Part shown: piece by piece, positions 9,669-28,296 of the stretch | Layout: every line of letters starts with the position of its first letter | Numbering within the stretch: the first letter of the stretch is position 1 | Assembly: GCA_017442825.1 (NCBI GenBank) | Contig: JAFRYZ010000005.1 | Location: 1-64,000 of the forward strand | Source of the DNA: Prevotella sp. | GTDB lineage: Bacteria > Bacteroidota > Bacteroidia > Bacteroidales > Bacteroidaceae | Reading direction: 5' to 3' | DNA: 64,000 nt | The notes under the pieces: generated by a model | Seen by the model: the letters and a program-made list of their open reading frames with translations, nothing else | Told to the model about the DNA's origin: nothing | Databases searched by the model: none | Translations under genes and position numbers: made by a program

Positions 9669-9678
9669 TTTCCGAACG

Positions 9679-9710
9679 CAAATGTAATGCAATAGCAGAA
9701 AACTTCCAAA
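9679..9710 (-). promoter_or_regulatory. Promoter TTTG-N20-TACATTTG
   Basis: On the reverse strand TTTG (9707-9710) and TACATTTG (9679-9686) are separated by exactly 20 bp, matching the Bacteroidota sigma-ABfr -33/-7 consensus. Transcription would start near 9672, about 4 nt before the ATG at 9668. Confidence 0.75.
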
Positions 9711-9721
9711 TATTTCTACCG

Positions 9722-9765
9722 AAAAAAACAATAATGTAGGGCGCATCCCTGTCCGGAATGCGCCC
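9722..9765 (-). terminator. Terminator of the left SusC/SusD operon
   Basis: Reverse-strand hairpin with stem GGGCGCAT/ATGCGCCC (9739-9746 with 9758-9765) followed by a run of seven T on that strand (9722-9728 on the plus strand are A). It lies about 45 bp after the susD-like stop. Confidence 0.75.
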
Positions 9766-9810
9766 CCATTGCTGATGATGCTTAACAAGCCTGTAGGCTG
9801 TTTACAAACT

Positions 9811-11382
9811 TTATCGGGAACCTCCAGCCCACCATACCGGCTCGGTATAGACATACTGACCTGTGCCGAAAGCCTCCTTCACGTTCGGATTGGCTGTTGT
9901 ATCGCTGTTTCCGTAACCGTAGCGGAGTGGAAAGCGCGTGGCGTTCTTCGGATTTTCCAGCACAATGAAGTCCTCACCGAGAGCCTTCAGGCGGCGGATG
10001 TCGTTGTAAGCCTCCGTCGATTCACCGTTGGCACCATAGAAGGCAATGTATTTCTGCACCATAATCTCCTTCAGCAAGTCTGTTCCCGTCAGCGAAGCAA
10101 TGATGTTGTTGTAGTAAGCCTCTGCATCGGCTTCGGTCAGCGGTGTGTTCGTGTCGCCCTCATCCTCGTTGAACCAATAGCCAGTGTTGCCGGCATTGTC
10201 CAAGGCAGAAGTCAGCGAAGCCTCCGTATTGGCAAAGGCAGCTACGAGTGCTTTCTTCACACACTCCTTGGCAGCATCTTCCTGCCCTAAGCGAGCCAGT
10301 GCCTCAGCTTTGATGAACTGTACCTCGTGGTAGCTCAGCAGGTAGGTGGAAGCGGTCTGTGCCAGCGAATAGCAGTCGTAGGTATAGACCCACTGCATCT
10401 GCTCCGGCGTACCGTTAGGAACGGGGAGAAAGTCTTCGCTTTCCGGTGTGATGTGTGCATCATAGGGAAGGAAGAGGATGCGGCTGATACGCGGGTCGTT
10501 GCGCTCGATAAGCTTCTTGCACATGCTCTCGCTGACACCGAAGTAGTCGCGGCTGTACTGAAGGTCGAAAGTAGGATTCCAGTTGTTGGCATCATACGTG
10601 TTGTAAGCTGCCTGCTCGTTCGGACTTTCAAAGGAATTGTTGCAACATTCAACAATCTGCTGGTAGACAGCATTCTTGTCGGAAGCGCGGAAGATGGTGT
10701 GGAGCAGCAGACGTGCCTTCAGACCGTAGGCGAACTTCAGCCAGCTGGCGGTCTTTCCGCCGTAGATGAAGTCATAGCGTCCCAGTCCTGCATCGCCAGT
10801 GCATTGCAGGTCGGCAATAGCCTCGTCCAGTGTCTGCATGATGCTTTTATACACGTCCTCCTGCTTGTCTATTTTCGGGTTCATGTTGTCACTACCCCTG
10901 AAGGCTTCCGAATAAGGAATGTCGCCAAAGAGGTCGGTCAATATAGCGGCATTGTATGCCACATATACCTTGGCAATACCCCTGATGCCTGCATTGCCGG
11001 CATCAGAGCCTTCAGCATCGTCCTCTGTCTTTTCTACTACCTTGAGTGCGCTGTTCAGGTTGGCATAGGTAGCGTTCCACGCATTGTTGAAGGTGGACGA
11101 AACTGTCCACTCGCCCATGCGGGTCTCGGCATTGTACAGCTGGTTGAAGACACCACCCTCATGCTCTACTGCGATGGCTGCGTAGGTGTTGAAATCACCG
11201 CCCGACACACTGACAGCCGTAGCCGTAGCCAGGTCTGCCACCATGAACTTCGCATCAGCAGTCAACGGGTGGTTCGTATCTTTGTTCACACTGTCCATAG
11301 CATCCTCAGAACAACCTGCGAAAAGTGTCGCAACTGCCAGTGTGAAGAGCGTTGTCTGGAATATCTTGAATATCTTTTTCAT
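9811..11382 (-). CDS. SusD/RagB-like outer-membrane lipoprotein (SusD-like 2 type)
   Basis: 523-residue lipoprotein: signal peptide, then lipobox FAGC with the lipidated Cys at residue 24. The sequence has the features of the SusD-like_2 branch (NKDTNHPL near the N terminus, helical TPR-like pairs, a C-terminal EAYNDIRRL segment). SusD proteins cap the SusC channel on the cell surface and capture glycans or peptides. It starts 12 bp after the susC-like gene, so the two form one operon, read from the promoter at 14693-14724 in the present orientation. Substrate unknown; no degradative enzyme is linked directly to this pair. Confidence 0.9.
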   Translation of the reverse strand: MKKIFKIFQTTLFTLAVATLFAGCSEDAMDSVNKDTNHPLTADAKFMVADLATATAVSVSGGDFNTYAAIAVEHEGGVFNQLYNAETRMGEWTVSSTFNNAWNATYANLNSALKVVEKTEDDAEGSDAGNAGIRGIAKVYVAYNAAILTDLFGDIPYSEAFRGSDNMNPKIDKQEDVYKSIMQTLDEAIADLQCTGDAGLGRYDFIYGGKTASWLKFAYGLKARLLLHTIFRASDKNAVYQQIVECCNNSFESPNEQAAYNTYDANNWNPTFDLQYSRDYFGVSESMCKKLIERNDPRISRILFLPYDAHITPESEDFLPVPNGTPEQMQWVYTYDCYSLAQTASTYLLSYHEVQFIKAEALARLGQEDAAKECVKKALVAAFANTEASLTSALDNAGNTGYWFNEDEGDTNTPLTEADAEAYYNNIIASLTGTDLLKEIMVQKYIAFYGANGESTEAYNDIRRLKALGEDFIVLENPKNATRFPLRYGYGNSDTTANPNVKEAFGTGQYVYTEPVWWAGGSR

Positions 11383-11394: not shown

Positions 11395-14300
11395 TTAGAA
11401 GTTGAATGTAAGTCCGAAACCGTATGTAGAAGAACCGGGCAGTGAGAAGCGTTCGAAGCCGCCCGACATGTTGTTGTTGCCCTGTGATGCTTCGGGGTCG
11501 AAGCCTTTGATAGATGAGTAGAGCAGCAGGTTGCGGGCGAAAGCGCTCAAGGTGATATGCAACCAAGGTTTCTCCACAATGGGATAGCTCAGTGATAATT
11601 CGCGCAGTTTCAGGTAGGTGGAGCTGTGAATGAAGGATTCTGAGATGTCGTTCAATGCCGTGAAATAGGCATTGGCTGCGCTTCCGCTGATGTAGATGTC
11701 GTTAGGCGAATATGTTCCGTCGCCATTGTCCTTGACAGCAGGCTGTTCGAAGAGGAACTGGTCCTGGCTGCGCAGGTCGGCAGAGCGCTGGCTGGTGCCG
11801 TAGTAGTCCATCATGGTGTAGGTGCCGGCATACATCTTGCCGCCTTTCTTCCAATCGAAGGTGGCATTCAGTCGGAACTTGTACAGTTCGAGCGAGGTGT
11901 TGAAACCAATCTGGAAGTCGGGAGAGACATTTCCCAGCACTTTTTCCTCGCCTGGCATGGGGAGACCATTTTCATCGACAACGATGTCGCCGTTCTCGTT
12001 GCGCAGGTAGCTGATGCCATAGATGACAGGGAACTTATAGCCGATGCCGGCACGTATCTGCGGCTCGACAAAACCACCGAGGAAGATGCTCTCTACGCCC
12101 TCAGCCAAGTCATCGACATAGTTGTTCACCTTGGTGTAGTTCAGGCTCAAGTCCCACTTGACGTTCTTCGTGTTGACAGGGCGTGCACCAATCGTCAACT
12201 CATGGGTGTTGGTGTGGATGGAACCGCCGTTGGTGCGGAATTCATAGTAACCGGTGGAACCAGCCATAGGCACATCGAAGATCTGGTCTTTCACGTTCTG
12301 ACGGGAGAAGGTGTAGTTTAAGGTAAACAAGCCGTGGAGGAAAGCCAAGTCGAGGCCGAACTCGTAGGAACGGGTGTTCTGTGGCTTCAGGTTCGGGTCA
12401 TAGATACGCTCGTAGGGCTTGTATGCCACGATACCGTTGATAGGATACTGCATCGGGGTACCGCTGGAGAAGCCACCGCCGTATGTAGGAACTGCAAAAT
12501 AAGACTGGTAGTAAGTGCCAGCCATACCTACTTCGGCGTATGATGCGCGAATCTTACCATAGGTAAGGATGTTGTTCTTCAGCGGTTTCAGCTCGGTAAA
12601 GATAAATCCGAGAGAAACAGACGGGTAGAAGAACGAACGGTTGTTGCGCGGCATGGTCGATACCATGTCGTTGCGTCCCGTAACGTTCAGGAAGAGCATG
12701 TTCTTGAAGTCGATAGAGAGGTTGCCGAAGTTACCTACGGTACGTGTCTTGTAGTTATATTCTCTTCCTGTGTAAGAAGAGATGTTGTTCATGCTGTTCC
12801 AACCTGCAAAGTTGAAGCCTACTCCGAAAGACTCCAGCTCATGTCTCTTCTTCTGCACAATCTCGTTACCATAGAGAAAGTTGAGGTGCCAGTCCTTGTT
12901 AATCTTCCAGTCGAACGAAGCCGTCAGTAAGGAGTTCAACTCGTTGATGGTTATCGAGTTGTCATCAATCTCGCCACTGCCGCGACTGTTGTCGCCATAG
13001 GCGTACATGTCCTTATATTTAGTGGTATAGGCATCGTCACCCAACTGGTATTTGGCATCAATCTTCATCTTGTCGTTGATGGGGTATTCAAACTTCAGGT
13101 AAGCATTGCCGAAGAAACGCTGCGAACGCTCAGAGAATTCGTTGTTCTGTGTTGCCCAGTACGGATTGTTGAAGCTTCCCGGACGATAGAGCACCTGCGA
13201 GGTCGGGTCGTCAGGGGTGTGAGAAGGAATGCCTTTCAGGTCGTAGGACGATGGACAACCATACAGGGCAGCCATGATACCATCGTTGGCACCAGCCTGC
13301 TTGGTAATCTTCGAGGCAATGAAATTGCCGCTGAAGCCTGTAGTAAAGTACTTGTTGATTTTCAACGAGGCATTCAACTTGGCATTATAGCGTTGCATAC
13401 CCGTCTCCGGAACAATACCGTTTTGTGTGGTATTGCCGATAGAGAACGAGTAGTCTCCGCGACCGAGGTTCTGGGTGATGCTGACATTGTTGCTCCATGC
13501 TACGCCCGTCTGGAAGAAGTCACGCAGGTTGTCGTAGGTATCGGGTGCCGTCCACGGGTCGAGTCCGGCAGCCGCACGCTTGGAGCTGTAGTACTGACCT
13601 TCATGTATGCCGAAACGCTGTGTGTAGGAGTTGTCTGTTTTGCCACCGTAGGTGGGATCGTTGGGGAGTTCCGAAATTTTCGGACCCCATGCCAAGGAGG
13701 TGTTGGGATTGAAACGTCCACCAGCACCCTGAGCATACTCTTTCTGCACGTCGGGCAGTGTAGAAACGGTTGAAAAAGAGAGGCTGGTGTTGTAGGTAAT
13801 CTGTGGTTTCCCTTTGGCAACACCCTTGCCGCTCTTCGTGGTGATGATGATGACACCATTGGAGGCACGCATACCGTAGAGCGCACTGGCAGCCTGACCT
13901 TTCAGCACGTTGATGCTCTCAATGTCGTTCGGGTCGATGTCGAGTGCACGGTTAGCATAGTCGGAACCGGTAACGGACTGCTCGGTATCTATATCGGCAG
14001 TAGAGGCAATCGGCATACCATCGACAACATAGAGTGGGGTGTTGTCGCCGGTGAACGAGCGGGCGCCGCGAATGGTGATGTGCGATGAGGCACCAGGCAT
14101 ACCGGATGAAGGTGTGATGTTGATACCCGACAACTTACCCGACATGGCTGATGCCAAGTCGGTTCCCATGCCTTGTGTCAGCTTGTCGGCATCAATGTCC
14201 TGTGTGGCATAACCCAAGGATTTCTTCTCGCGCGAGATACCCATTGCCGTCACAACGACCTCATTCAGGTCGGTACTGCTGCTGCGTAGCACGATGCGCA

Positions 14301-14565
14301 TACCGTCTCTTGCAACAATCTCCACCGGTTCCATACCCAAGTAAGAGATGGTAATGTTTTTCTTACCTGCCGGAAGAGTAATGCTGAAAGCGCCGTTAAT
14401 GTCTGTAACAACGCCAGACTCCGTACCCGTCACACGTACTGCTGCGCCAACAATAGGCTCATTGTCTTCTTGCGAAACGACAGTACCCGTGATTCTGCTT
14501 TGAGCCAATGCCCCTCCCGCGAAGCAGAAGAGGGTGACTAAAATCATGGTTAGTTTTCTTTTCAT
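11395..14565 (-). CDS. SusC/RagA-family TonB-dependent receptor (left locus)
   Basis: 1056-residue outer-membrane receptor. Signal peptide MKRKLTMILVTLFCFAGGALAQ, then a carboxypeptidase-regulatory-like domain (GTVVSQEDNEPIVGAAV, about residues 25-100), a plug domain starting near LNEVVVTAMG with ITIRGARSF and ALYGMRASNGVIIITTKSG, and a long beta-barrel ending GLTFNF. It imports nutrients across the outer membrane using TonB energy together with the SusD partner downstream. Its 5' leader and first 60 or so coding bases are nearly identical, in inverted orientation, to those of the SusC gene at 16018. A Bacteroidota promoter at 14693-14724 points at it, so in this orientation it should be expressed. 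Confidence 0.93.
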   Translation of the reverse strand: MKRKLTMILVTLFCFAGGALAQSRITGTVVSQEDNEPIVGAAVRVTGTESGVVTDINGAFSITLPAGKKNITISYLGMEPVEIVARDGMRIVLRSSSTDLNEVVVTAMGISREKKSLGYATQDIDADKLTQGMGTDLASAMSGKLSGINITPSSGMPGASSHITIRGARSFTGDNTPLYVVDGMPIASTADIDTEQSVTGSDYANRALDIDPNDIESINVLKGQAASALYGMRASNGVIIITTKSGKGVAKGKPQITYNTSLSFSTVSTLPDVQKEYAQGAGGRFNPNTSLAWGPKISELPNDPTYGGKTDNSYTQRFGIHEGQYYSSKRAAAGLDPWTAPDTYDNLRDFFQTGVAWSNNVSITQNLGRGDYSFSIGNTTQNGIVPETGMQRYNAKLNASLKINKYFTTGFSGNFIASKITKQAGANDGIMAALYGCPSSYDLKGIPSHTPDDPTSQVLYRPGSFNNPYWATQNNEFSERSQRFFGNAYLKFEYPINDKMKIDAKYQLGDDAYTTKYKDMYAYGDNSRGSGEIDDNSITINELNSLLTASFDWKINKDWHLNFLYGNEIVQKKRHELESFGVGFNFAGWNSMNNISSYTGREYNYKTRTVGNFGNLSIDFKNMLFLNVTGRNDMVSTMPRNNRSFFYPSVSLGFIFTELKPLKNNILTYGKIRASYAEVGMAGTYYQSYFAVPTYGGGFSSGTPMQYPINGIVAYKPYERIYDPNLKPQNTRSYEFGLDLAFLHGLFTLNYTFSRQNVKDQIFDVPMAGSTGYYEFRTNGGSIHTNTHELTIGARPVNTKNVKWDLSLNYTKVNNYVDDLAEGVESIFLGGFVEPQIRAGIGYKFPVIYGISYLRNENGDIVVDENGLPMPGEEKVLGNVSPDFQIGFNTSLELYKFRLNATFDWKKGGKMYAGTYTMMDYYGTSQRSADLRSQDQFLFEQPAVKDNGDGTYSPNDIYISGSAANAYFTALNDISESFIHSSTYLKLRELSLSYPIVEKPWLHITLSAFARNLLLYSSIKGFDPEASQGNNNMSGGFERFSLPGSSTYGFGLTFNF

Positions 14566-14583
14566 AAATTTTTTACTTTAGTT

Positions 14584-14660
14584 AATATATTAGATGTGTA
14601 TTTATTAAGGCAGTGTTTCCTTACGAATCTATCGTTTTTGCACACCTCTGCGTCAGAGGT
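14584..14660 (-). repeat. Left inverted repeat (IR-L) of the invertible segment
   Basis: Two blocks are exactly matched in inverted orientation on the other side of the recombinase: a 35-bp block (14584-14618, matching 15965-15999) and the 17-bp palindrome-like core ACCTCTGCGTCAGAGGT (14644-14660, matching 15922-15938). The sequence between the blocks is diverged but of almost the same length. Similarity continues outward into the signal-peptide codons of susC. The core can also form a hairpin in the mRNA leader (ACACCTCTG/CAGAGGTGT). Confidence 0.92.
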
Positions 14661-14692
14661 GTAGCTTTTCATGCCCACAATTTAACAATTTG

Positions 14693-14724
14693 CAAAGATA
14701 ATGCAAACCTGTTAACTAAACAAA
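14693..14724 (-). promoter_or_regulatory. Outward promoter TTTG-N20-TATCTTTG inside the invertible segment
   Basis: On the reverse strand TTTG (14721-14724) and TATCTTTG (14693-14700) are separated by exactly 20 bp, a perfect Bacteroidota vegetative promoter. Transcription would start near 14686, cross the left inverted repeat and enter susC at 14565, giving a leader of about 120 nt that contains the ACACCTCTG hairpin. Confidence 0.85.
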
Positions 14725-14835
14725 GAAAGTTTAAAGCAAGCCCTGTTTTTTTACCTTTTTTAATACTTTATACCCTTTTCAGCCCCATTTTGCCTGCTTT
14801 ATACCATTATTTATTCCCTTCTCGATATCGGATAA

Positions 14836-15894
14836 TTATGGTTCCTGCATCAGCGGCACGGGGGTTAAGTCATCCAGCAGCTTCTTATTGGCATCATGCA
14901 GGCGCTTGTCGTTGATTCCTCTTATATATAATAAGGTGGTATGGGTGTCGGTATGCCCCAAAGCCTTAGAGATGACGGGGAGGTCAATATTCTTTTGGTA
15001 AGCCAAACTTGCCCAAGTATGGCGGCTGCAATAAGAGGTAAGGCGGCAATGGATACCCGCTTTCCTTGCCAACACTTTTAAGGCACGGTTGTACCGCCCC
15101 AACAGTCGGAGGTATTCGCGCGATGATTGTACTGAAACTTGGGAAGTAAGCAAGGGGAAGACATAAGGACTGTCAGGGTTATCGTATTTGTTGATGATCT
15201 CCCTCATGCACGGTTCTATCTGCATAGAGACACGTTGTCCCGTTTTTCTGCGGTCATAGGTCAGTTTGTTGTCAGACAGTTGTGACTTTTTCAGGAAGGC
15301 AAGATCGACAAACGGCATACCTAAGGCATAGCAACTGAAGAGAAACAAGTCGCGCGCAAGCGCCAGGAAGGTTCCTTCTTTCAGTTTAATCGCCATCATG
15401 CGCTTGATGTCATCCGTTTCTATGGCACGTTTCTCCGTCTGTGTACGTCCCGTGAAAGCCTTCTCGAAGGAGTTTTCTTTTACATAAAAGCCTTTCTTTG
15501 CCGCCACATGGCAAAGTGAACGCAACGACCTGACATAGCAAGAAGACGTGTTAAGGCATACTCCTTTCAGTCGAAGCCACTTTTGCCAAGCTCCTATCAG
15601 CTCAGCCGTGATGTCATGAAAGTCCAAGTCTGGCTCCCCGACATAAAGCAGTAGCGACCTGACGGCAGTTTCGTAATTATTTATGGTACTCTCACTACGC
15701 AGTTTTCTCATGCCGGCGACCTCTTGTTGCAGGAACTTTCGTATACCGAGGGTACGCTCACCGGCTTCTTGCCGACCTTCTTTCTCTGACGAGCGGTTCT
15801 TCTTACGAAAAAGAATCCTTCGTTTTTCGATGAAACCGCGCTTTTCTTCCGATTTGTACACGTTAATGTGCAATTCAAATTTAATTTTAATCAT
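14836..15894 (-). CDS. Tyrosine recombinase (candidate DNA invertase)
   Basis: 352-residue tyrosine recombinase of the Bacteroidota type. An N-terminal core-binding SAM-like domain (about 55-150, with RSESTINNYETAVRSLL) is followed by a catalytic domain (about 155-335). Visible catalytic elements are RRKTGQ with Lys217, SRHTWAS with Arg291, LGHTDTHTT with His314 and the nucleophile Tyr323 in LLYI. The position usually held by the first Arg reads ALGMPFVD (Leu191), and the box II His position is Tyr288; such departures are known among Bacteroides integrases, for example IntDOT. It lies alone between two inverted repeats, which fits a locus-specific invertase better than an element integrase. 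No clear promoter of its own was seen. Confidence 0.9.
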   Translation of the reverse strand: MIKIKFELHINVYKSEEKRGFIEKRRILFRKKNRSSEKEGRQEAGERTLGIRKFLQQEVAGMRKLRSESTINNYETAVRSLLLYVGEPDLDFHDITAELIGAWQKWLRLKGVCLNTSSCYVRSLRSLCHVAAKKGFYVKENSFEKAFTGRTQTEKRAIETDDIKRMMAIKLKEGTFLALARDLFLFSCYALGMPFVDLAFLKKSQLSDNKLTYDRRKTGQRVSMQIEPCMREIINKYDNPDSPYVFPLLTSQVSVQSSREYLRLLGRYNRALKVLARKAGIHCRLTSYCSRHTWASLAYQKNIDLPVISKALGHTDTHTTLLYIRGINDKRLHDANKKLLDDLTPVPLMQEP

Positions 15895-15921
15895 ATCCTT
15901 ATCTTTTGGTTATCAAATGCC

Positions 15922-15999
15922 ACCTCTGACGCAGAGGTAGGCAAAAAACAACAAAAATGTAAGAAAACACTGCCTTAATAAATACACATCTAATATATT
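15922..15999 (+). repeat. Right inverted repeat (IR-R) of the invertible segment
   Basis: Contains the core ACCTCTGACGCAGAGGT (15922-15938) and the 35-bp block (15965-15999), both exact inverted copies of sequence at 14584-14660. It forms most of the leader of the SusC gene at 16018. No TTTG-N20-TAnnTTTG pair is present between 15895 and 16017; the nearest resemblance, TATCTTTTG at 15900-15908, has one extra T and no -33 element. Confidence 0.92.
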
Positions 16000-16017
16000 T
16001 AACTTAAAAAAAGACTT

Positions 16018-19000
16018 ATGAAAAGAAGACTAACCATGATTTTAGTCAGCCTCTTCTGCTTTGTAGGAGGGGCGTTGGCTCAGATGCAAGTGAATGGTAC
16101 CGTCGTCTCACAGGAAGATAATCAGCCTGTGATCGGTGCGTCCATCGTTGTTCCCGGGACACAAGTCGGTGCAGCTACTGACATGAACGGTAAGTTCTCG
16201 CTGACTGTTCCGAAAGGAAAGAGCACACTGAGAATCTCATACGTTGGTATGGAGACACTGGAAGTCAGTGCACGTCCGAATATGAAGATTGTGCTGAGTA
16301 GCGACCAGAGTGCCCTCGACGAAGTAATGGTTGTTGCTTATGGTACCCAGAAGAAATCAGCTTTCACGGGTTCTGCAGCAGTCGTTAACTCTGAAGAGAT
16401 AGGCAAAGTACAGGTGACGAACGCCATCGACGCTTTGAGAGGTAAGGCATCTGGTGTGCAGATTACCAACCTGACAGGTGCTCCTGGTTCTACGCCGACC
16501 ATCCGCATTCGTGGTGTGAACTCTATTTCTGCCGGCAGCGACCCGCTGATCGTACTCGACGGTTCACCCTACGACGGTTCGTTGAACGATATCAACCCGG
16601 CTGACGTCGAGAGCATGACGGTGCTGAAGGATGCTGCTTCTACTGCCCTCTACGGTGCACGTGGTGGTAACGGTGTCATCTTGATTACCACGAAGAGTGC
16701 CAAGAAAGGCAAGGACGCCGTCGTTACCGTTGATGCCAAGTGGGGTGGTAACCACCGCGCTACTCCTCAGTATGAGGTCATCAACTCTCCTGCCAAGTAC
16801 TACGAAATGTGGTATCAGGGATTGTACAACTACGGACAGGACAAGTTAGGTTACAGTGCTCAGGATGCTTGGCAATATGCCAACAAGGCTATGTTCGATG
16901 CTGGTCAGGCAACCTCTTTGGGTTACAATGTTTATAATGTACCCGATGGCCAGTACCTGATTGGTCAGAACGGCAAACTGAACCCCAATGCCAGATTGGG
17001 TAACATCGTCAATGGATACTATCTCTATCCCGACGATTGGAACGATGCCATCTACAAGACCGGTTTGCGTCAGGAATATACTGTTTCAGCTACGGGTAGC
17101 ACCGACAAGGGAACCTTCTACGGTTCTGTCAACTACTTGAGCAACGACGGTATCACTACCAATTCTGACTACAAGCGTTTCTCTGCTCGTTTGAAGGCTG
17201 ACTATCAGCTGAAAGACTGGTTGAAGATTGGTGCCAACATGTCTTATGCACACTTCGACCGCAACTATCTTGGTGACGATGGTGAGAGTGGATCGTCGGG
17301 CAATATCTTTGCGCTGGGCTACATCGCTCCTATCTATCCGGTTTATATGCGCGACGCTTCTGGTCAGGTCATCTATGACGAAACGACTAAGATGCCACGC
17401 TACGACTATGGTGATGCTGGTTCTGTAGGTATTGTACGTCCGTACCTGAGCCAGTCTAACCCGTTGTCAGCAAACCGTCTGGACAAGAACAACTCTGAAG
17501 GTAACACCTTCAACGGTACAGGAACTTTGGAAGTACGCTTCCCCTATGGTTTCACCTTCACCTCTATCAACAACGTCTATCTGCGTGAATGGCGCTCTAC
17601 GAATACAACGAACCCCTACTATGGACAGTATGCCAACCTGAATGGTCAGGTTGTTAAAGAGCACCAGCGCTATTGGTCGTACAACTACCAGCAGCGTATC
17701 AACTGGAAACGACTCTTTGGCAAGCACGACATCGAGTTGATGGCTGCCCACGAGTACTATCGTCTGCGCGACTACGACCTGTATTACTACAAGAACAACC
17801 AGTTCTCACCCGAAAACGACGAGTTGGCTGGTGCCGTTGTTGCTGGTCAGGGTACCTCTACCCGTGGCGATTACAACACCGAGTCATGGCTCGGACGTGC
17901 CATGTATAACTTCGACGAGCGCTACTTCGCTCAGGCAAGCCTTGTGCGCCAAGCTTCTTCTCACTTCGCTCCTGGTCATCGCTGGGGTACCTTCTGGAGC
18001 TTCGGTGCTGGTTGGCTCATCAACAAGGAGAAGTTCATGGAGGATGCAACATGGATTGACGAGTTGAAACTGAAGATTTCTTATGGTGAGAACGGTAACG
18101 ACCAGATTGGTTCATACCGCTACATTAACTATTTTTCTATTGTCAACTCTAACGACAACGCCGCCTTGATTCCTTCTGCTTTGGGTAATCCTGACATCAC
18201 ATGGGAGAAGAACGGTAAGTTCAACGTTGGTTTCGACTTCTCGTTCTGGAACGGACGACTCACTGGTGGATTCGAGTACTACTCTAACACCACAAAGGAC
18301 ATGCTCTCCTACTTCACGCTGCCTAACAGCTTTGGTTACGGAGGCTACTATGCCAATATCGGTAACATGCGCAACAGTGGTCTGGAATTCCAGGTTGCCG
18401 GCGACATGATCCGCAACAAGAACCTGAAGTGGTCTGCCTACTTGAACCTTACAACCAACCACAATGAAGTGACCAAGTTGCCAGAAGAGCGCAAGACACA
18501 GTGGACTGGCGATGGTCAGCACAGAGGATATCGCTCAGGAAACTTCTTCTACACCGAAGGCGAGTCTCGCTATTCTTACTATACCAAGAGCTATGCCGGT
18601 GTTGATCCTGAAACGGGTGAGTCGCTGTGGTACAAATACCAATACAAACAGAAAGAAGACGGTACTGGCAACGAACTCGATGCTAATGGCAATCCTATCG
18701 TTGAGAGTGTAGGTACAACCAAGACTTATTCTGAAGCTGACTACTTCATCGTTGGCGACGTTCTGCCCGATGTCTACGGTGGTTTCGGTACCAGCATCAG
18801 CTGGCAGGGCATTGACTTCTCTGTTGACTTCCAGTATCAGTTGGGTGGCAAGGTCTATGACTCACAATATGCCTCACTCATGACTCTTGGCAATTCCGGA
18901 GGTTACGGTCTGCATGTTGACCTGCTGAACGCATGGTCTGCAACGAATGCCAATTCCAACATTCCACGTCTCCAGTATGGTGACACTTACATGGCAGGTT

Positions 19001-19251
19001 CTTCCGACCGATTCCTGACCAGTGCTTCTTATCTCTCTCTTCAGAACATCACGTTAGGTTATACCTTCCCGAAGAAGTGGACCATGAAACTGGGTATCCA
19101 GAAGGTACGCGTCTATTGTGTTGCCGACAACGTATGGGTATGGTCTAAGCGTCAAGGTCTCGACCCGCGTGTTTCTATTACCAGTAACAGTGGTCAGGGC
19201 TACTATTCACCCATCCGTACCATCTCAGGTGGTATTACGGTTACGTTCTAA
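16018..19251 (+). CDS. SusC/RagA-family TonB-dependent receptor (right locus)
   Basis: 1077-residue receptor with signal peptide MKRRLTMILVSLFCFVGGALAQ, regulatory-like domain (GTVVSQEDNQPVIGASI), plug domain (LDEVMVVAYGTQKKSAFTGSA, IRIRGVNSI, ALYGARGGNGVILITTKS) and a beta-barrel ending GGITVTF. It starts an operon with a SusD partner, a lipoprotein and possibly an M6 protease, suggesting uptake of peptides or protein-bound nutrients, by analogy with RagA/RagB. Its leader and signal-peptide codons mirror those of the SusC at 14565. No clear promoter precedes it in this orientation, so it may be silent until the neighbouring segment inverts. Confidence 0.93.
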   Translation: MKRRLTMILVSLFCFVGGALAQMQVNGTVVSQEDNQPVIGASIVVPGTQVGAATDMNGKFSLTVPKGKSTLRISYVGMETLEVSARPNMKIVLSSDQSALDEVMVVAYGTQKKSAFTGSAAVVNSEEIGKVQVTNAIDALRGKASGVQITNLTGAPGSTPTIRIRGVNSISAGSDPLIVLDGSPYDGSLNDINPADVESMTVLKDAASTALYGARGGNGVILITTKSAKKGKDAVVTVDAKWGGNHRATPQYEVINSPAKYYEMWYQGLYNYGQDKLGYSAQDAWQYANKAMFDAGQATSLGYNVYNVPDGQYLIGQNGKLNPNARLGNIVNGYYLYPDDWNDAIYKTGLRQEYTVSATGSTDKGTFYGSVNYLSNDGITTNSDYKRFSARLKADYQLKDWLKIGANMSYAHFDRNYLGDDGESGSSGNIFALGYIAPIYPVYMRDASGQVIYDETTKMPRYDYGDAGSVGIVRPYLSQSNPLSANRLDKNNSEGNTFNGTGTLEVRFPYGFTFTSINNVYLREWRSTNTTNPYYGQYANLNGQVVKEHQRYWSYNYQQRINWKRLFGKHDIELMAAHEYYRLRDYDLYYYKNNQFSPENDELAGAVVAGQGTSTRGDYNTESWLGRAMYNFDERYFAQASLVRQASSHFAPGHRWGTFWSFGAGWLINKEKFMEDATWIDELKLKISYGENGNDQIGSYRYINYFSIVNSNDNAALIPSALGNPDITWEKNGKFNVGFDFSFWNGRLTGGFEYYSNTTKDMLSYFTLPNSFGYGGYYANIGNMRNSGLEFQVAGDMIRNKNLKWSAYLNLTTNHNEVTKLPEERKTQWTGDGQHRGYRSGNFFYTEGESRYSYYTKSYAGVDPETGESLWYKYQYKQKEDGTGNELDANGNPIVESVGTTKTYSEADYFIVGDVLPDVYGGFGTSISWQGIDFSVDFQYQLGGKVYDSQYASLMTLGNSGGYGLHVDLLNAWSATNANSNIPRLQYGDTYMAGSSDRFLTSASYLSLQNITLGYTFPKKWTMKLGIQKVRVYCVADNVWVWSKRQGLDPRVSITSNSGQGYYSPIRTISGGITVTF

Positions 19252-19287: not shown

Positions 19288-20928
19288 ATGAAAAGATATA
19301 TCAGATTAATGACAACGGCTGGTCTCTTTGCCCTTGTACTTGCCAACACAAGCTGTATTGACGAGACCGAGCCGACAAGCGTGGCTACACAGGCACAGGC
19401 TGAACGTTCCTCTTCTGCCACCAAAGCTCAGGCGATGGCTATGCCGGCTCAGTTGAACGCGATGGACGAAGATTATACTGACAATTACAACTGGCATGCT
19501 CCCTTCGGTTATCCTGCCATGATGATCATTCGTGACATGATGTGTAACGATATGGGATTCCCTACTAGTGATTATGCCAGTCACTTCTATTATTTCGGTG
19601 CTGATAAGTATTTAGGCGGACAGTATATCTATTTGGCCTACATTTGGGAATATTACTACAAACTCATTCAAACAGCCAATGCTGTTATCGGTGTGGTTAA
19701 TCCAGAATCTGCTACCAAGGAGCAGCTGGGCTTCCTCGGTGCTGCCTACGCTTTCCGTGCAATGGCTTATCTTGACCTTGCCCGTATGTATGAGTTCCTG
19801 CCCAATGAAATGACCAAGAGCGTCAATGCCGACAATAACGATGTTACAGGTCTGACTGTTCCTATCGTGAAGCCGGGTATGACCGAGCAGGAGGCTCGTA
19901 ACAACCCACGTGCCAAGAAGGAAGATATGGTTGAATTTATCAAGGGCGACCTGGAACTGGCTAAGCAGTATATTCCTAATATTACTGACCGCATCAGCCG
20001 CACGCTGCCTAACCTGGCTTGTGTTTATGGTTTGGAGGCACGTTTCGATATGTGGATTGAGGACTATTCCGCTGCCGCCGCAGCTGCAGAACATGCTATT
20101 GCCGAATCGGGCATGACTCCGCTGTCAGAGGCTGTCGCTCTGGATAAGGCTTCTGGTATGAATACTCCGTCACAGTTCATGTGGTGCTGTAACCTCGTGA
20201 AAGAAGATGCTGCCGTACAGTCGGGTATTGTCAACTTCGTATCTTGGATGTCTAACCAGACTACCTATGGTTACACCGGTACTGCTACAGGTCAGTATAT
20301 GATTTGCGACAAGAAGTTCTACAATCGCATCTCTCCTACCGACTGGCGTATCAAGTGGTGGCAAGCTCCCGAAGGTTCCGACCTCCGCAACCAGAAGGCT
20401 AAGAACCATATTGAATACCTGATAGCTTCCGCCGCTGAAGATATGCCAGAACTGGCATCCCTCAAGTTCCGTCCCGGACAGGGTAATACGGAAGACTACA
20501 ATGTGGGTAGCGCCGTAGCTGTTCCTCTCATGCGTGTAGAAGAAATGTATTTCATCAAGGCTGAAGCTGAAGCACATACCGATGCAGCCAAGGGCCTTGC
20601 TACATTGACCGACTTCATGGTTCAGTATCGTGATCCTAACTTCGCAAAGAAAGTTTCTACGGTGGAAGCTGCCATCGACGAAATCATCTTCCAGAAGCGT
20701 GTTGAGCTTTGGGGCGAAGGTCAACTTTTCTTTGACTACAAACGTCTGAATATGAGTGTAAACCGTGGTTATGAAGGAACACCATTCTTCAACTTGATGC
20801 GTCTGAATTCTAACGGACGTCCGGCTTGGATGAATCTTGTCATCTCCGTCAGCGAGTATCAGGACAACCAAGCTGTCAACCACTGGAACAACCCAGACCC
20901 GTCAGACCTTTATACTCCATGGGAATAA
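19288..20928 (+). CDS. SusD/RagB-family outer-membrane lipoprotein (right locus)
   Basis: 546-residue lipoprotein with lipobox ANTSC (Cys23) after a signal peptide. SusD-type features include an N-terminal helical-repeat core (FRAMAYLDLARMYEF), and a C-terminal part with VPLMRVEEMYFIKAEAEA and RVELWGEGQLFFDYKRLN, the typical end of RagB/SusD proteins. It lies 36 bp after its SusC partner and 24 bp before the next lipoprotein gene. It would bind the ligand at the surface and hand it to the SusC channel. It differs strongly in sequence from the left-locus SusD, so the two loci probably take up different substrates. Confidence 0.92.
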   Translation: MKRYIRLMTTAGLFALVLANTSCIDETEPTSVATQAQAERSSSATKAQAMAMPAQLNAMDEDYTDNYNWHAPFGYPAMMIIRDMMCNDMGFPTSDYASHFYYFGADKYLGGQYIYLAYIWEYYYKLIQTANAVIGVVNPESATKEQLGFLGAAYAFRAMAYLDLARMYEFLPNEMTKSVNADNNDVTGLTVPIVKPGMTEQEARNNPRAKKEDMVEFIKGDLELAKQYIPNITDRISRTLPNLACVYGLEARFDMWIEDYSAAAAAAEHAIAESGMTPLSEAVALDKASGMNTPSQFMWCCNLVKEDAAVQSGIVNFVSWMSNQTTYGYTGTATGQYMICDKKFYNRISPTDWRIKWWQAPEGSDLRNQKAKNHIEYLIASAAEDMPELASLKFRPGQGNTEDYNVGSAVAVPLMRVEEMYFIKAEAEAHTDAAKGLATLTDFMVQYRDPNFAKKVSTVEAAIDEIIFQKRVELWGEGQLFFDYKRLNMSVNRGYEGTPFFNLMRLNSNGRPAWMNLVISVSEYQDNQAVNHWNNPDPSDLYTPWE

Positions 20929-20952: not shown

Positions 20953-22962
20953 ATGAACAAGATATTTAAAAGTGCATTCGTAGCCCTTCTTGCCGTATTA
21001 GGGCTGACGTTGACCGCCTGTGTCAACAAATACGAGTACGACGGTGCCTTGGCTGAAGGTTCGAAAGTGTATTTCAGCAAGGATTTGGATGCTACGGTCG
21101 AGGTTTCTTTTGACGAAAGTAGTTTCACCGTTACCGTCAATCGTACCGATACGCAGGGTGAACTGACTGTTCCGCTGACGGTTACCATGAGCGATGGTAG
21201 CATCTTCACGCCGCAAGGAACGTCTGTAACTTTTGCCGATGGCGAATCTACAGCTAAACTCGTTTTTGCCTATAATCCTGCAGATGTAGAATATGGTCAT
21301 TATGATGACATCACCGTCACCATCAACGATGAGTCGCTGACCAGTAACTATGGTGCGGCATCCTATGCTTTCAAGGCTGGAAAGACAGAGTGGAAGCTCA
21401 TGGATACTTCTCTGGGTAAGGCTTCCTATCGTGACGACATCATGTCTGGTCTTATGGGTATATCCAATGAGATTTGGAATGTTGAAATCTACGAGAGTGT
21501 GGCTACACCAGGACGTTATATGGTGAAAGATCCTTATGGACTTGATGCTTATAGAAAGAGTAGTTTGTGGAGTACCGAAGATGAAATTGAAGAATATTAT
21601 GGCTTGACAACTGGTGTGACACCCAACATCGTGGTTAATGCACAGGATCCCAATTTCGTTTGGATTGAGGAGTTTGAGATGCCTTATGCTTCTATTTTTG
21701 GATTCAATATGACCATCATAAGTTATGTTGACTACTTCTTGAATACCAGAGGTATGACTTTGGATGCCGTGAAGGCTAAATATCCAGAAAGTTTCGGTAC
21801 GCTTGAAGATGGCGTTATTTCTATGCCTGCCAGCGAATTAATATTCACTCGTGACGGACAGCTATGGAACTACGTCAACAACAACGGTCTCTTTGCCATT
21901 GCTTTGCCAGGTGCTACCATTGGCGACTTCTCCATTGAGGCTGATTACCTGGGTATTTTCACCAATGTTTCTGAAAAACCGTTTGCAGTTGTTGAAACTA
22001 AGTTGGGTGAAGACGCTTCCGATGTCAAGGCTGTAGTCGTTGAAGGAGATGCCGATGCAGGAGCTGTAGCTGACGCTATTGCTGCTGGTGAACTGGAAGG
22101 CATCGAAATCCTCGACGGACAGAACAATGTGCCTATCGCTGATGGCTTGGAAGGCAAGTTGCAGGTTGTCCTCGTTGTTCTCAACGGTGGCAAGGTGAAG
22201 ACAGTAACAGCTCTTCCGTTCGAGTACTTTGGTGGAGGCAGTCCTTGGCAGACCTTAGGTATTGGTTACTATACTGAAGACTTTATCGTATCACACTACG
22301 GTTATGATCCTGTAACTTATGAGGTGGAGATTCAGGAGAGCACTTCTACTCCGGGCGTGTATCGCATCAAGAACGCCTATGCTCCGCTCTGTGGCATGTT
22401 CGGTATGAGTGGTGGCGAAGAAGACATCATCGTCCATGCTGAGAATCCTGCCGGTGTATATGTCTTGACTCAGACTACTGGATTTGTTGCAGATTATGGT
22501 AATTTCGCCATCAGTACATACGGTGGTAACGATGTAGAATATTTGGTTGCTAAATACAGTGTAACCCCAGAGCAAGTCATCGCTGCATATCCAGGTGATT
22601 TCGGTCAGTTAGAAAATGGCGTCATCACCTTCCCGCTGATTGGTGCTGAAGATGCAGAAGGTCCTATTATCGATGAAAGTACTGGTCAACAGTTGATGTT
22701 CCAAGGTTATCTGTTTGGCGGTGAGGAATACTGGTTTGAAGGAAGGAATGGAGCTGTTAAACTCGTATTGCCTGGTGCTCCCGAAGCTGTCAAAGCCCAG
22801 GCACGCAAGGCTGCTGCTGCTACCAAGGGACGCCACTTCAATCGTAGCGTGAAGGCATCTGCAAGTAAGTCTGTTTCCAAGAATATCAAGCGCCAGATGC
22901 TCCGTAAAAAAGCTTCGAAGTTGATCCAACTCGCTCCGCAAGCAAAAAAATTAGCATTCTAA
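20953..22962 (+). CDS. Surface lipoprotein with two repeated domains and a basic tail
   Basis: 669-residue lipoprotein, lipobox LTAC with Cys near residue 23. An N-terminal Calx-beta-like beta-sandwich (about 30-140, with VYFSKDLDATVEVS) is followed by two related domains (about 150-330 and 425-620). These share openings such as LGKASYRDDI/LGIGYYTEDF and motifs NVEIYESVATPGRY/EVEIQESTSTPGVY. The last 55 residues are strongly basic (RKAAAATKGRHFNRS, NIKRQMLRKK), unusual for an anchored surface protein. As the third gene of the right Sus operon it probably acts as an accessory surface binding protein, like SusE/F in position but not in recognisable sequence. A hairpin terminator follows. Confidence 0.8.
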   Translation: MNKIFKSAFVALLAVLGLTLTACVNKYEYDGALAEGSKVYFSKDLDATVEVSFDESSFTVTVNRTDTQGELTVPLTVTMSDGSIFTPQGTSVTFADGESTAKLVFAYNPADVEYGHYDDITVTINDESLTSNYGAASYAFKAGKTEWKLMDTSLGKASYRDDIMSGLMGISNEIWNVEIYESVATPGRYMVKDPYGLDAYRKSSLWSTEDEIEEYYGLTTGVTPNIVVNAQDPNFVWIEEFEMPYASIFGFNMTIISYVDYFLNTRGMTLDAVKAKYPESFGTLEDGVISMPASELIFTRDGQLWNYVNNNGLFAIALPGATIGDFSIEADYLGIFTNVSEKPFAVVETKLGEDASDVKAVVVEGDADAGAVADAIAAGELEGIEILDGQNNVPIADGLEGKLQVVLVVLNGGKVKTVTALPFEYFGGGSPWQTLGIGYYTEDFIVSHYGYDPVTYEVEIQESTSTPGVYRIKNAYAPLCGMFGMSGGEEDIIVHAENPAGVYVLTQTTGFVADYGNFAISTYGGNDVEYLVAKYSVTPEQVIAAYPGDFGQLENGVITFPLIGAEDAEGPIIDESTGQQLMFQGYLFGGEEYWFEGRNGAVKLVLPGAPEAVKAQARKAAAATKGRHFNRSVKASASKSVSKNIKRQMLRKKASKLIQLAPQAKKLAF

Positions 22963-22983
22963 CGCAATAGAATTGTTACCAAG

Positions 22984-23018
22984 AGGCGTGGGTCACAGCA
23001 ATATGTGGCTTCACGCCT
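22984..23018 (+). terminator. Hairpin between the lipoprotein and M6 protease genes
   Basis: Stem AGGCGTG/CACGCCT (22984-22990 with 23012-23018) with an inner GTCACA/TGTGGC stem, followed by TTTCGGTTGTTTT. It may end or weaken transcription before the protease gene. Confidence 0.6.
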
Positions 23019-23069
23019 TTCGGTTGTTTTAAAACCTACGGTAATATTTCTTAACTCAACCATATAGAA

Positions 23070-25514
23070 ATGAAGACAAGAATACTATTGATTGCCGCGA
23101 TGGCAATAACAGCCCTGACGGCATCTGCCGTTCCTGCCAAGCGAGTGACGAAGAAGGTGAAGCAAGCCGATGGCACTATCTTGGAACTAACCTTGCGGGG
23201 TGACGAGCATTTTTCCTTCTATACAGACAAGGACGGTACGCCCTTCCTGTTGGATGCAACAGGGAAAGCTCGCCAGATTACCATGCAGAAAGCAAAGCAA
23301 GCATGGACGGAGCAGAAGCAGGCAAGGCTGGCAAAGGTGCGCCGCAAGGCATCAGGAAAGCAAAGCAGAAAGCTGGCACCGAACGAAGTGGGCAAACCCA
23401 AGTCATCGACAACGGGAAACCACCGCGGACTGGTCATTCTGATGCAGTTCCCCGACGTGCCGTTTTCTACAGCCGACCCCAAAGCCACCTTCCAACGTTT
23501 CTTTAACGAGACGGGTTATAGCGACTTCGGCATGTCTGGATCGGTGAAAGACTATTTCCTCAAGCAGAGCTACAACCAACTCCATATTGACTTCGACGTT
23601 GTTGGTCCCTATACCACCAAGAACAACATGGAATACTACGGTAAACCTTACACCGACGAGCAGGACTACAGTCACAACGACAGACATCCAGCCCTGATGG
23701 TGGCAGAAGGTGTTGATGCTGCAGCTGAGGAGGTTGATTTCAGCAACTACGACTGGGACAAAGACGGTGAAGTCGATCAGGTATTCGTTGTCTATGCAGG
23801 CTATGCTCAGGCACAAGGCGCCGATGAGAACACCATCTGGCCGCACGAATACAGTCTGGCTGGTGAAGGTGCTACACGCACCTATAATAACTGCACCATC
23901 GACACCTACGGTTGCGCATCTGAGTTGAGTGGCGATGGAGTTCATGATATTGGCATTCTGGATGGTATCGGTACGGCATGTCACGAGTTCAGCCACTGTA
24001 TGGGTCTGCCTGACATGTACGACACAGCAGACTTAGCGTTTGGTATGGGCGACTGGGATGTGATGTGTTCTGGAAACTATAATAACAACTCGCGCACACC
24101 AGCTGGATACACTTCTTATGAGCGTATGTTCTCGGGGTGGCTGCAACCCACGGAAATCAACACCATGACCCGCATCAATGGCATGAAACCGTTGGCTAAT
24201 AACCAAGAGGCATATATCCTGTATAACGAGAAAAACAAAGACGAATACTACCTGTTGGAAAACAGACAGCCCGTAGAATTCGACAGTGCCTTGCCTGGAC
24301 ACGGACTGCTCGTGCTCCATGTGGATTATAACGAGGGGGCTTGGAATACCAATAGTGTCAATGTTGAAGCCGGTCATCAGCGTATGACGATTATACCTGC
24401 AGACAACAAAGACTCTTATCCCACTGAGGCTGGTGACCCATTCCCAGGAACCAGTGGTGTTACCTCACTGACCAACTATACCACACCGGCGGCTATTGTT
24501 TATACCGGTCAGTTCATGAACAAGCCTATCGACAATATTACCGAAGACAATGAGAACAAAACGGTGTCGTTTGTGCTCTGCCGCCCGGAATTGGCTATTC
24601 CCGAACCTGACAATGGCAAGCAGGTAGAGAACGAGAATGCCTTCTCGGTGATGTGGCAGGCAATCTCCGGAGCTGTCGGCTACGAACTGGAACTGACAGA
24701 AATCGGCAAGGCATCGGACGATCCTGCCGAAGCACTGCTGAATTCTTTTGACTTTAGCGGTTGTTACAGCAAAACAAACGGATTTACCGACATCTCTTCA
24801 AAGATGTCGGACTACGGACTTCCCGGATGGTCGGGCAGTAAGTTGTTTACTACTCCCGAAAAGTTGCGCTTAGGAACCTCCAGTGCGACAGGTAAGGTGC
24901 GCACGCCGACTTGGAAGGTGCCGCAATCGTCGGATATGACTATCGTGATGGGTGCCAAAGTCTTCAAAGCAGGTACACCAGTGGCAGGTGACATTCAGAT
25001 CGCTTTCGGAAACGAAGGCGAACAGGCTACTTTCGAAAGTCAGAGTTTCACTGTTACTGCCGATGAAAAGTTGGTCTTCAACTTCTCGGTTACCAAGAAT
25101 CTGTTCTGGATTAACATTTTGCCGAAGGCGCAGATGTATCTGAACTATCTCGCTCTTTACGATGGCAAGTGGACAGCCGAGCAACTGGGACTGAACGCCA
25201 ACAATGCCAAGGCTGACGGTCCGCGCTACGCTGCAGAGAAGCAGACGATGACGACGACGGATAATAGCTATACCTTCACGGGTCTGAATACCAACAAACG
25301 CTATATCTATCGCGTGCGAGCACTGGGTGAGGAAAGTACTTTCTCGCAGTGGAGCGAAGAGAAGACTTTTGAGTTCCCGGGTTCTACCGCCATTAACGTG
25401 GTGAAAGCCGATGCTACCCATACTCCTTCAGACATGTATAACCTGCAAGGTCAGCGTGTCAACAACGGCTATCGCGGTATTGTGATTCGCAACGGAAGGA
25501 AGTATGTGAAATAA
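23070..25514 (+). CDS. Secreted M6-family zinc metalloprotease
   Basis: 814-residue secreted protease. Signal peptide about 1-20; a propeptide-like segment follows, rich in Lys and Arg (to about 115). The catalytic domain (about 118-420) contains the zinc motif HEFSH at 305-309 in CHEFSHCMGLPDMYD, typical of the immune-inhibitor-A (M6) family. A beta-rich C-terminal part (about 530-780) contains a fibronectin-like segment (YTFTGLNTNKRYIYRVRALG), and the last 30 residues (MYNLQGQRV ... GIVIRNGRKYVK) form a sorting tail for type IX-like secretion. It lies 108 bp after the lipoprotein gene, beyond a hairpin, so it may belong to the right Sus operon only in part. Its peptides could be the substrate of that operon. 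Confidence 0.9.
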   Translation: MKTRILLIAAMAITALTASAVPAKRVTKKVKQADGTILELTLRGDEHFSFYTDKDGTPFLLDATGKARQITMQKAKQAWTEQKQARLAKVRRKASGKQSRKLAPNEVGKPKSSTTGNHRGLVILMQFPDVPFSTADPKATFQRFFNETGYSDFGMSGSVKDYFLKQSYNQLHIDFDVVGPYTTKNNMEYYGKPYTDEQDYSHNDRHPALMVAEGVDAAAEEVDFSNYDWDKDGEVDQVFVVYAGYAQAQGADENTIWPHEYSLAGEGATRTYNNCTIDTYGCASELSGDGVHDIGILDGIGTACHEFSHCMGLPDMYDTADLAFGMGDWDVMCSGNYNNNSRTPAGYTSYERMFSGWLQPTEINTMTRINGMKPLANNQEAYILYNEKNKDEYYLLENRQPVEFDSALPGHGLLVLHVDYNEGAWNTNSVNVEAGHQRMTIIPADNKDSYPTEAGDPFPGTSGVTSLTNYTTPAAIVYTGQFMNKPIDNITEDNENKTVSFVLCRPELAIPEPDNGKQVENENAFSVMWQAISGAVGYELELTEIGKASDDPAEALLNSFDFSGCYSKTNGFTDISSKMSDYGLPGWSGSKLFTTPEKLRLGTSSATGKVRTPTWKVPQSSDMTIVMGAKVFKAGTPVAGDIQIAFGNEGEQATFESQSFTVTADEKLVFNFSVTKNLFWINILPKAQMYLNYLALYDGKWTAEQLGLNANNAKADGPRYAAEKQTMTTTDNSYTFTGLNTNKRYIYRVRALGEESTFSQWSEEKTFEFPGSTAINVVKADATHTPSDMYNLQGQRVNNGYRGIVIRNGRKYVK

Positions 25515-28261: not shown

Positions 28262-28296
28262 AGAGACCCTTCTCTAACTCAGAGACCCTCTCCTAA

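What the first reader, a model, noticed from the sequence alone, without database searches (positions are those of the whole stretch)
14522..16080. Two-way DNA-inversion switch between two SusC/SusD operons
A tyrosine recombinase gene is bracketed by inverted repeats (35-bp and 17-bp blocks exactly identical) that form the leaders of two divergent SusC genes. The only good Bacteroidota promoter (TTTG-N20-TATCTTTG, 14693-14724) lies inside the bracket and faces the left SusC. Inversion would make it face the right SusC, whose present leader has no promoter of this form. So one promoter would serve one or the other complete uptake operon, never both. Inversion control of SusC/SusD proteins is known in Bacteroides; a reciprocal switch carrying its own recombinase between two different uptake systems is the notable point.
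Basis: partly seen in the sequence, partly recalled or inferred. Interest (0 to 1): 0.93.

Follow-up and report, generated by a model that had tools for sequence, protein, structure and literature searches.

The report
Self-flipping switch between uptake operons
In a Prevotella genome a recombinase gene and a single predicted promoter sit between two matching recombination sites and two back-to-back nutrient-uptake operons, so that flipping this piece would likely turn one operon on and the other off; the recombinase lies between two such operons in 28 other Prevotella loci, and two pairs of relatives carry the piece in opposite orientations.

Summary
Between two divergent SusC/SusD operons lies a 1.3-kb bracket (sites 14645-14659 and 15923-15937) with a tyrosine recombinase gene and one Bacteroidota promoter, which faces the left SusC. 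The right SusC has no such promoter. The design recurs: in 29 of 62 loci examined (window included) the recombinase lies between divergent SusC genes, all 29 in Prevotella. In 18 of the 29 the sites are an inverted pair YCTC-N7-GAGR whose 7-bp core is the same at both ends, 16 different cores in all; eight more have variant pairs or a longer bracket. In 25 of 26 loci with mapped sites exactly one end carries an outward promoter (15 with strict TTTG, 10 with a TTCG variant admitted afterwards). Two pairs of relatives show the bracket in opposite orientations; in one it is 95.0% identical inverted and 49.1% uninverted. Operon partners are exchanged between loci, and several loci carry secreted-protease genes, which suggests peptide uptake. 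Flipping in this strain, transcription and recombinase activity are inferred, not shown. Closest published relatives: Bacteroides SusC/SusD shufflons and the B. thetaiotaomicron BT2263-BT2269 locus. I file it as a new variant of a known kind.

The parts
14836..15894 (-). Tyrosine recombinase gene, 352 aa, inside the bracket; predicted to invert it
   Evidence: Pfam Phage_int_SAM_5 4.7e-13 and Phage_integrase 2.5e-8; R291, H314 and Y323 invariant in all 62 aligned rows, window included
14645..14659 (-). Left recombination site; on the - strand it reads CCTC-TGACGCA-GAGG
   Evidence: Inverted pair with 15923-15937 and identical 7-bp core
15923..15937 (+). Right recombination site CCTC-TGACGCA-GAGG
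14693..14724 (-). Only consensus Bacteroidota promoter of the bracket (TTTG-N20-TATCTTTG), facing the left SusC
   Evidence: -7 element 33 bp from the site, within the 26-37 bp seen in 20 of 25 loci
14584..14624 (-). Leader of the left SusC, 40 of 41 bases as in the right leader
15959..15999 (+). Leader of the right SusC, the inverted copy
11395..14565 (-). Left SusC/RagA-type TonB-dependent transporter, predicted on in this orientation
   Evidence: TIGR04056 2.1e-177; nearest solved chain BT_2264, 1.2e-107
9811..11382 (-). Left SusD-like lipoprotein
   Evidence: SusD-like_2 7.4e-49
6557..9854 (-). Two further genes, likely of the left operon (8628-9854, 408 aa; 6557-8767, 736 aa), no known family
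   Evidence: operon membership inferred from strand and spacing
16018..19251 (+). Right SusC/RagA-type transporter, predicted off in this orientation
   Evidence: TIGR04056 3.6e-244; nearest solved chain RagA, 1.5e-112, others close behind
19288..20928 (+). Right SusD-like lipoprotein
   Evidence: SusD-like_3 7.2e-12 and SusD_RagB 6.6e-9
20953..25514 (+). Two further genes, likely of the right operon: a 669-aa protein of no known family (20953-22962) and an 814-aa protein with an M6-type metalloprotease domain (23070-25514)
   Evidence: TIGR03296 3.2e-57; Pfam; operon membership inferred from strand and spacing

Best explanation
It is most likely a two-way DNA-inversion switch: a recombinase gene and one predicted promoter lie between two inverted sites with the same 7-bp core, and the recombinase would flip this 1.3-kb piece so that the promoter drives either the left or the right SusC/SusD uptake operon, not both. 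Shown here: the layout, the sites, the single promoter match, its recurrence in related Prevotella loci, and opposite orientations in two pairs of relatives. Inferred: that this recombinase acts on these sites, that the promoter is active, that the unfaced operon is silent, and that the operons import peptides or protein fragments. In the assembled orientation the left operon is predicted on. The promoter lies beyond the 3' end of the recombinase gene and points away from it, so it would not read the recombinase, whose 5' end abuts the leader predicted to be silent in either orientation.
For: 29 of 62 related recombinase loci sit between divergent SusC genes. 18 of the 29 have an inverted YCTC-N7-GAGR pair with exactly the same core, 16 distinct cores in all, and L097 has one mismatch. 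L045 has such a pair over a longer bracket, and seven others have exact inverted pairs of 19-59 bp with variant arms or core length. Of 26 loci with mapped sites, 25 have an outward promoter within 150 bp inside exactly one end, 0 at both, 1 at neither. Controls: inside but pointing inward 1 of 26; outside pointing inward 1 of 26; outside pointing to SusC 1 of 26 at 150-200 bp and 0 of 26 at 80-120 bp; shuffles 0.36 of 52 ends. L090/L093: bracket 95.0% identical inverted and 49.1% uninverted; the identical promoter faces the shared right SusC (90.8% protein identity) in one and away from it in the other. L091/L094: both SusC orthologous (90.0 and 91.2%), bracket flipped relative to both.
Against: No flipped copy of this very window was found; the nearest other recombinase is only 56% identical, and no reads were available. 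With strict TTTG only 15 of 26 loci have a promoter at one end (0 both, 11 neither); the other 10 use TTCG, which I admitted after seeing it in relatives. With any one mismatch allowed in the -33 element two loci (L081, L106) have matches at both ends, and within 100 bp of the sites the count is 23 of 26. L083 and L086 show no site pair, L051 no promoter, and L087 has a promoter match outside the bracket facing its right SusC. In L090/L093 the left operons differ (31% partner identity), and the leaders are alike enough that homologous recombination could also have flipped the bracket. The canonical first catalytic Arg is Pro in this recombinase and the His of HxxR is Tyr. The recombinase's own promoter was not found.
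Confidence: 0.84

Rival explanations
1. The bracket is inverted, but by homologous recombination between the near-identical leaders and 5' gene ends, with the recombinase a passenger.
For: The 60-base leaders and first 22 codons are 85% and 94% alike within a locus, against 68% and 73% between loci (medians), so recombination likely acts there; in L090/L093 the outer flanks are alike enough to hide the crossover point.
Against: In 18 of 29 loci the 7-bp core is matched within the locus while it varies between loci, the recombinase lies beside it, and in the window the longest exact block is only 35 bp.
Confidence: 0.06
2. A multi-site shufflon of the Bacteroides type, in which uptake genes rather than the promoter are moved.
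For: Known for B. fragilis SusC/SusD (PMC4747536, PMC5729914, passages); the related locus L045 has a bracket of about 8.7 kb that also carries a whole SusC/SusD operon.
Against: The window genome (79% complete) has only two exact copies of the site, and the bracket holds no uptake gene.
Confidence: 0.03
3. A former switch, now frozen: the left operon is permanently on and the right one dead or separately regulated.
For: No second orientation of this window seen; two relatives (L083, L086) have no recognisable site pair.
Against: Recombinase open and R291, H314, Y323 kept, both sites exact, both SusC and SusD frames open.
Confidence: 0.07

Closest known systems
Bacteroides thetaiotaomicron BT2263-BT2269 (MAFF) locus with the invertase homologue BT2267
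   Same: Two SusC/SusD pairs in reverse orientation with a DNA-invertase homologue in the locus; expression of the pairs moved in opposite directions in vivo, and the authors suggested promoter inversion (PMC6080902, passages and the Discussion section). The window's left SusC has BT_2264 as nearest solved relative.
   Different: There the inversion was proposed, not mapped, in what I read. Kinship of the window recombinase to BT2267 was not tested, nor whether a single promoter serves both pairs there.
B. fragilis SusC/SusD shufflons under Tsr0667
   Same: A recombinase varies which SusC/SusD pair is expressed (PMC4747536, passages).
   Different: There large segments carrying the genes are inverted behind an invertible promoter (PMC5729914, passages) and Tsr0667 serves three clusters and nine other regions. 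Here the promoter moves, with a recombinase inside the bracket and a site found only twice in the genome. The Tsr0667 site consensus AGTYYYN4GDACT (recalled) is absent from the bracket.
Simple invertible promoters of Bacteroidales
   Same: Promoter between inverted repeats, recombinase nearby. Ten of 33 related non-dual loci look like this.
   Different: One target, on or off; in those ten the recombinase gene lies outside the repeats or overlaps one of them.
Campylobacter fetus sapA promoter inversion, Salmonella Hin, phage Mu G segment (all recalled)
   Same: One invertible segment chooses between two surface-protein states.
   Different: Unrelated genes and hosts; from recollection only.

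Membership tests
Tyrosine recombinase family | Catalytic domain with conserved R, H and Y | tested here: met
   Pfam hits; R291, H314, Y323 and K217 invariant in 62 rows; but the canonical Arg I is Pro194 and HxxR reads YxxR
Two-way promoter-inversion switch | Inverted recombination sites with identical core around a promoter | tested here: met
Two-way promoter-inversion switch | Outward promoter at one end only, a gene at each end | tested here: met
   by consensus match only
Two-way promoter-inversion switch | Both orientations occur | tested here: inconclusive
   Yes in two pairs of relatives; not seen for this window
Two-way promoter-inversion switch | Expression follows orientation | not testable with these tools
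   no transcript data
Bacteroides SusC/SusD shufflon (Tsr0667 type) | Inverted segment carries uptake genes | tested here: not met
   Of the assigned genes only the recombinase lies in the bracket
Bacteroides SusC/SusD shufflon (Tsr0667 type) | Repeat consensus AGTYYYN4GDACT (recalled) | tested here: not met
   The only place in the window is 8512-8526, far from the bracket
BT2263-BT2269 type locus | Recombinase homologous to BT2267 | not tested
   No BT2267 sequence was fetched
BT2263-BT2269 type locus | SusC/SusD pairs in reverse orientation with an invertase in the locus | tested here: met

The most novel reading that the evidence does not exclude
Prevotella carry a genus-wide family of self-flipping two-slot sockets: one promoter with its own recombinase and a private 7-bp address expresses one of two transporter-protease cassettes at a time, and cassettes are exchanged between sockets of different species at the shared leader, so that the genus draws on a common library of interchangeable peptide-uptake systems.
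Probability: 0.5. Interest if true: 0.8.

Novelty: new variant of a known kind. Interest (0 to 1): 0.7.

Why it matters
If right, single cells of a common gut and rumen genus (recalled) hold one of two mutually exclusive outer-membrane uptake systems and swap by a DNA flip that could be read from ordinary metagenomes. SusC proteins are nutrient receptors and can be immune targets (PMC10939037, passages), so such a switch could shape diet use, phage entry and immune recognition. The promoter end gives a testable prediction of the expressed operon in each assembled genome, and the locus-specific core sequences would allow flips to be counted locus by locus.

Tried and rejected
Flipped copy of the window: searched the own genome, 149 genomes, 398 genomes of the genus, 393 genomes of the order, these sets overlapping, and genome contigs. 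No other recombinase above 56% identity was found, so the window could not be compared with its own inverted form.

More sites in the genome (a shufflon): rejected, only the two exact copies in a 79% complete genome.

Spread outside Prevotella: of 38 further loci, 36 are from outside the genus, and of the 20 loci seven are; none of the 58 lies between divergent SusC genes in the stretch held. 25 of the 36 have at most 1.5 kb of flank. In L173 and L175 a SusC gene lies on one side.

One origin of the dual form: the recombinase tree neither shows nor rules out a single clade.

Recombinase promoter: no consensus promoter found in front of it in the window; among 26 loci one has a match inside pointing inward and one outside pointing inward; unresolved.

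The left operon's 736-aa gene: no family, and no solved relative better than E 0.7.

Genus by rpoB: neither the window's genome nor that of L038 has a match, so GyrB was used instead.

Papers: Nakayama-Imaohji 2009, Kuwahara 2004 and Porter 2020 were not held and are known to me only by recall or as cited in others. The searches listed no paper that I recognised as describing a two-way SusC/SusD promoter switch in Prevotella; most listed papers I saw only as titles and abstract starts, and subscription papers are mostly outside that library. One search (Campylobacter fetus) gave nothing usable.
Full report
WHAT IS THERE. The window lies on contig C65 (115 kb) of a genome of 2.3 Mb, 69 contigs, 79% complete. 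Its genus is not named by the tools. I call it Prevotella because GyrB of the named genome behind L038 (Prevotella sp. isolate Tb.RUG.522) is 91.8% identical to that of the window's genome and 88.3 and 92.8% to two others of its genus, against 73.6-77.7% for three genomes of two sister genera (one of the ten rows, G117, gave no comparable frame). Left operon (-): SusC 11395-14565, SusD 9811-11382, then probably 8628-9854 and 6557-8767. Right operon (+): SusC 16018-19251, SusD 19288-20928, then probably 20953-22962 and 23070-25514, the last with an M6-type metalloprotease domain. Between the two SusC starts is a tyrosine recombinase gene, 14836-15894 (-).

SITES AND PROMOTER. The SusC starts and leaders are inverted copies of each other in three blocks: 66 of 74, 40 of 41 and 25 of 27 bases. 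The innermost block holds CACCTCTGACGCAGAGGT, found exactly twice in the genome. The only TTTG-N17..23-TAnnTTTG match of the region is 14693-14724 (-), inside the bracket and facing left; nothing of the kind faces the right SusC.

A RECURRING DESIGN. With the window and L038 this makes 62 loci. They were chosen by similarity: they include 53 of the 63 matches listed, one more of which was looked at later (L130, no SusC found in its stretch), plus weaker hits. In 29 of the 62 the recombinase lies between divergent SusC genes, and 55 of these 58 SusC genes have a SusD behind them. Four loci have SusC on one side only; two of these (L039, L050) are cut by a contig end. Twenty-nine have no SusC beside them. 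Of 36 loci from outside the genus (25 with short flanks) and seven none was dual; nor were the 13 same-genus loci and the two.

THE SITES CARRY A PRIVATE ADDRESS. In 18 of 29 dual loci an inverted pair YCTC-N7-GAGR has exactly the same 7-bp core at both ends; L097 has one mismatch. The 18 loci use 16 distinct cores, and the two shared cores belong to pairs of close relatives (L043/L099, L090/L093). Seven others (L038, L051, L081, L082, L087, L088, L092) have exact inverted pairs of 19-59 bp with variant arms or core length. L045 has a matching pair around a longer bracket with an extra SusC/SusD operon. L083 and L086 show no pair. Matching within a locus and variation between loci is what a tyrosine recombinase that needs core identity would leave (inference from the known mechanism of the family).

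ONE PROMOTER, ONE END. For the 26 loci with mapped sites (L045, L083 and L086 left out), I looked for -33 TTTG or TTCG, spacing 19-21, -7 TAnnTTTG. Within 150 bp inside the sites, 25 have an outward promoter at exactly one end, 0 at both, 1 (L051) at neither; within 100 bp it is 23, 0 and 3. Controls: inside pointing inward 1 of 26; outside pointing inward 1 of 26 (at both ends); between site and annotated SusC start 1 of 26 (L087); dinucleotide shuffles 0.36 of 52 ends. In five loci the site-to-SusC interval was empty or short on one side because the annotated frame reaches the site, so I repeated that control at fixed distance: 0 of 26 within 80 or 120 bp, 1 of 26 within 150 or 200 bp. TTCG was admitted after seeing it in relatives; with TTTG alone the counts are 15 one end, 0 both, 11 neither. 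A looser rule (any one mismatch at -33, spacing 18-22, 400 bp) gives 23 one end, 2 both (L081, L106), 1 neither. L045 also has a promoter at one end only. The -7 element lies 26-37 bp from the site in 20 of the 25. In 22 of 25 the promoter points the way the recombinase gene points; the three exceptions (L046, L098, L101) form one supported clade. In those 22 the promoter does not read the recombinase, whose 5' end faces the leader predicted to be silent.

OPPOSITE ORIENTATIONS IN RELATIVES. L090 and L093: the right operon is collinear (88.7% DNA, SusC 90.8% protein, recombinase 96.0%), but the bracket matches inverted at 95.0% and uninverted at 49.1%. The left site of L090 with the next 61 bases inward is identical to the right site of L093 with its inner flank (76 bases); at the other end the match is 88.5% over 78 columns, against 61.4% uninverted. 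The identical promoter faces the right SusC in L090 and the left one in L093. Their left SusC proteins are only 31.1% identical. L091 and L094: both SusC are orthologous (90.0 and 91.2%), the arms are collinear, and the bracket is flipped relative to both, though the recombinases are only 63.6% alike. These show flips in evolution, not in one culture.

PARTNERS ARE SWAPPED. At 70% protein identity the 58 SusC arms fall into 41 clusters, 10 with more than one member. Only the L091/L094 pair of clusters keeps its partner; in the other eight the partner differs in every member. One cluster occurs in seven loci with seven partners; for one of these, L045, the partner counted lies inside its long bracket, so six is the safe number. 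At a stricter 80% there are 15 pairs of arms; in 13 the partners are 25-50% identical, some over part of their length, and in 2 (both L091/L094) 90-91%. Without the three pairs that involve L045 it is 10 of 12. L049 and L108 share 6.3 kb of left operon at 82.6% up to the leader, and L045 and L049 share 6.1 kb at 96.0%; L043 and L099 share the bracket (92.3%) and right operon (97.9%) but not the left operon. Leaders and first 22 codons are more alike within a locus (medians 85% and 94%) than between loci (68% and 73%). In four loci (L041, L083, L090, L118) my rule set the start codon of one or both arms inside the gene, so their values are not true leader comparisons.

WHAT THE OPERONS MAY DO. 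The nearest solved relative of the left SusC is BT_2264 (364 bits, next 146), whose structure held peptide (PMC7782687 and PMC11817032, passages). That of the right SusC is the peptide transporter RagA (381 bits), but SusC homologues are close behind (359 and 337 bits), one of them sharing its sequence with the fructo-oligosaccharide transporter entry 6z8i, so its substrate is open. Proteins similar to M6 or C10 peptidases occur in the fetched stretches of 17 of 29 dual loci (L092 only at 27 bits) and of 5 of 33 non-dual ones; stretches are often too short to be complete, and I did not check that each lies in the operon. Of ten downstream proteins scanned from L038, L083 and L098, four are peptidases (two M6, two C10) and six match nothing. 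Peptide or protein uptake is the best guess for the function, not shown.

COMPARISON WITH WHAT IS KNOWN. Inversion control of SusC/SusD is known in B. fragilis (PMC4747536, PMC5729914, PMC12632263, passages). The nearest published layout is BT2263-BT2269 of B. thetaiotaomicron, where reverse-oriented SusC/SusD pairs with an invertase homologue changed in opposite directions and promoter inversion was suggested (PMC6080902, passages and Discussion). New here, as far as my searches go: mapped sites with locus-specific cores, a promoter at one end only in 25 of 26 loci, opposite orientations in relatives, the recombinase carried inside the bracket, and partner exchange. I call it a new variant of a known kind.

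Noticed in passing
window 14836-15894, residues 194, 215, 288: The canonical first catalytic Arg of tyrosine recombinases is Pro in all 29 dual-locus recombinases and 26 of 33 others, and the His of HxxR is Tyr in all 62; an Arg at 215 is invariant and might stand in.
   Followed up: partly
L045 328-9030: A switch of the same type whose bracket spans about 8.7 kb and contains a whole extra SusC/SusD operon besides the recombinase.
   Followed up: partly
L042, L047, L048, L052, L054, L057, L102, L104, L105, L115: Related recombinases beside a lone promoter between inverted repeats 130-231 bp apart: likely simple on/off switches from which the two-way form may derive.
   Followed up: partly
window 25817-32938: Three consecutive genes for large proteins with right-handed beta-helix domains (Pel9A-like) follow the right operon.
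   Followed up: no
G000:C58:92130-92987 (L055): A second related recombinase (34% identity) in the same genome with a consensus promoter about 130-160 bp beyond its 3' end, facing back towards it; no paired YCTC-N7-GAGR site found.
   Followed up: no
L083, L086: Dual loci without a recognisable site pair, perhaps frozen after an operon swap.
   Followed up: partly
L038 genome, G789:C61:4467-5399: The named Prevotella genome behind L038 has a second recombinase of this family (44% identity to the window's) whose surroundings I did not examine.
   Followed up: no
window 172-5796: 1874-aa open frame without a Pfam match.
   Followed up: no
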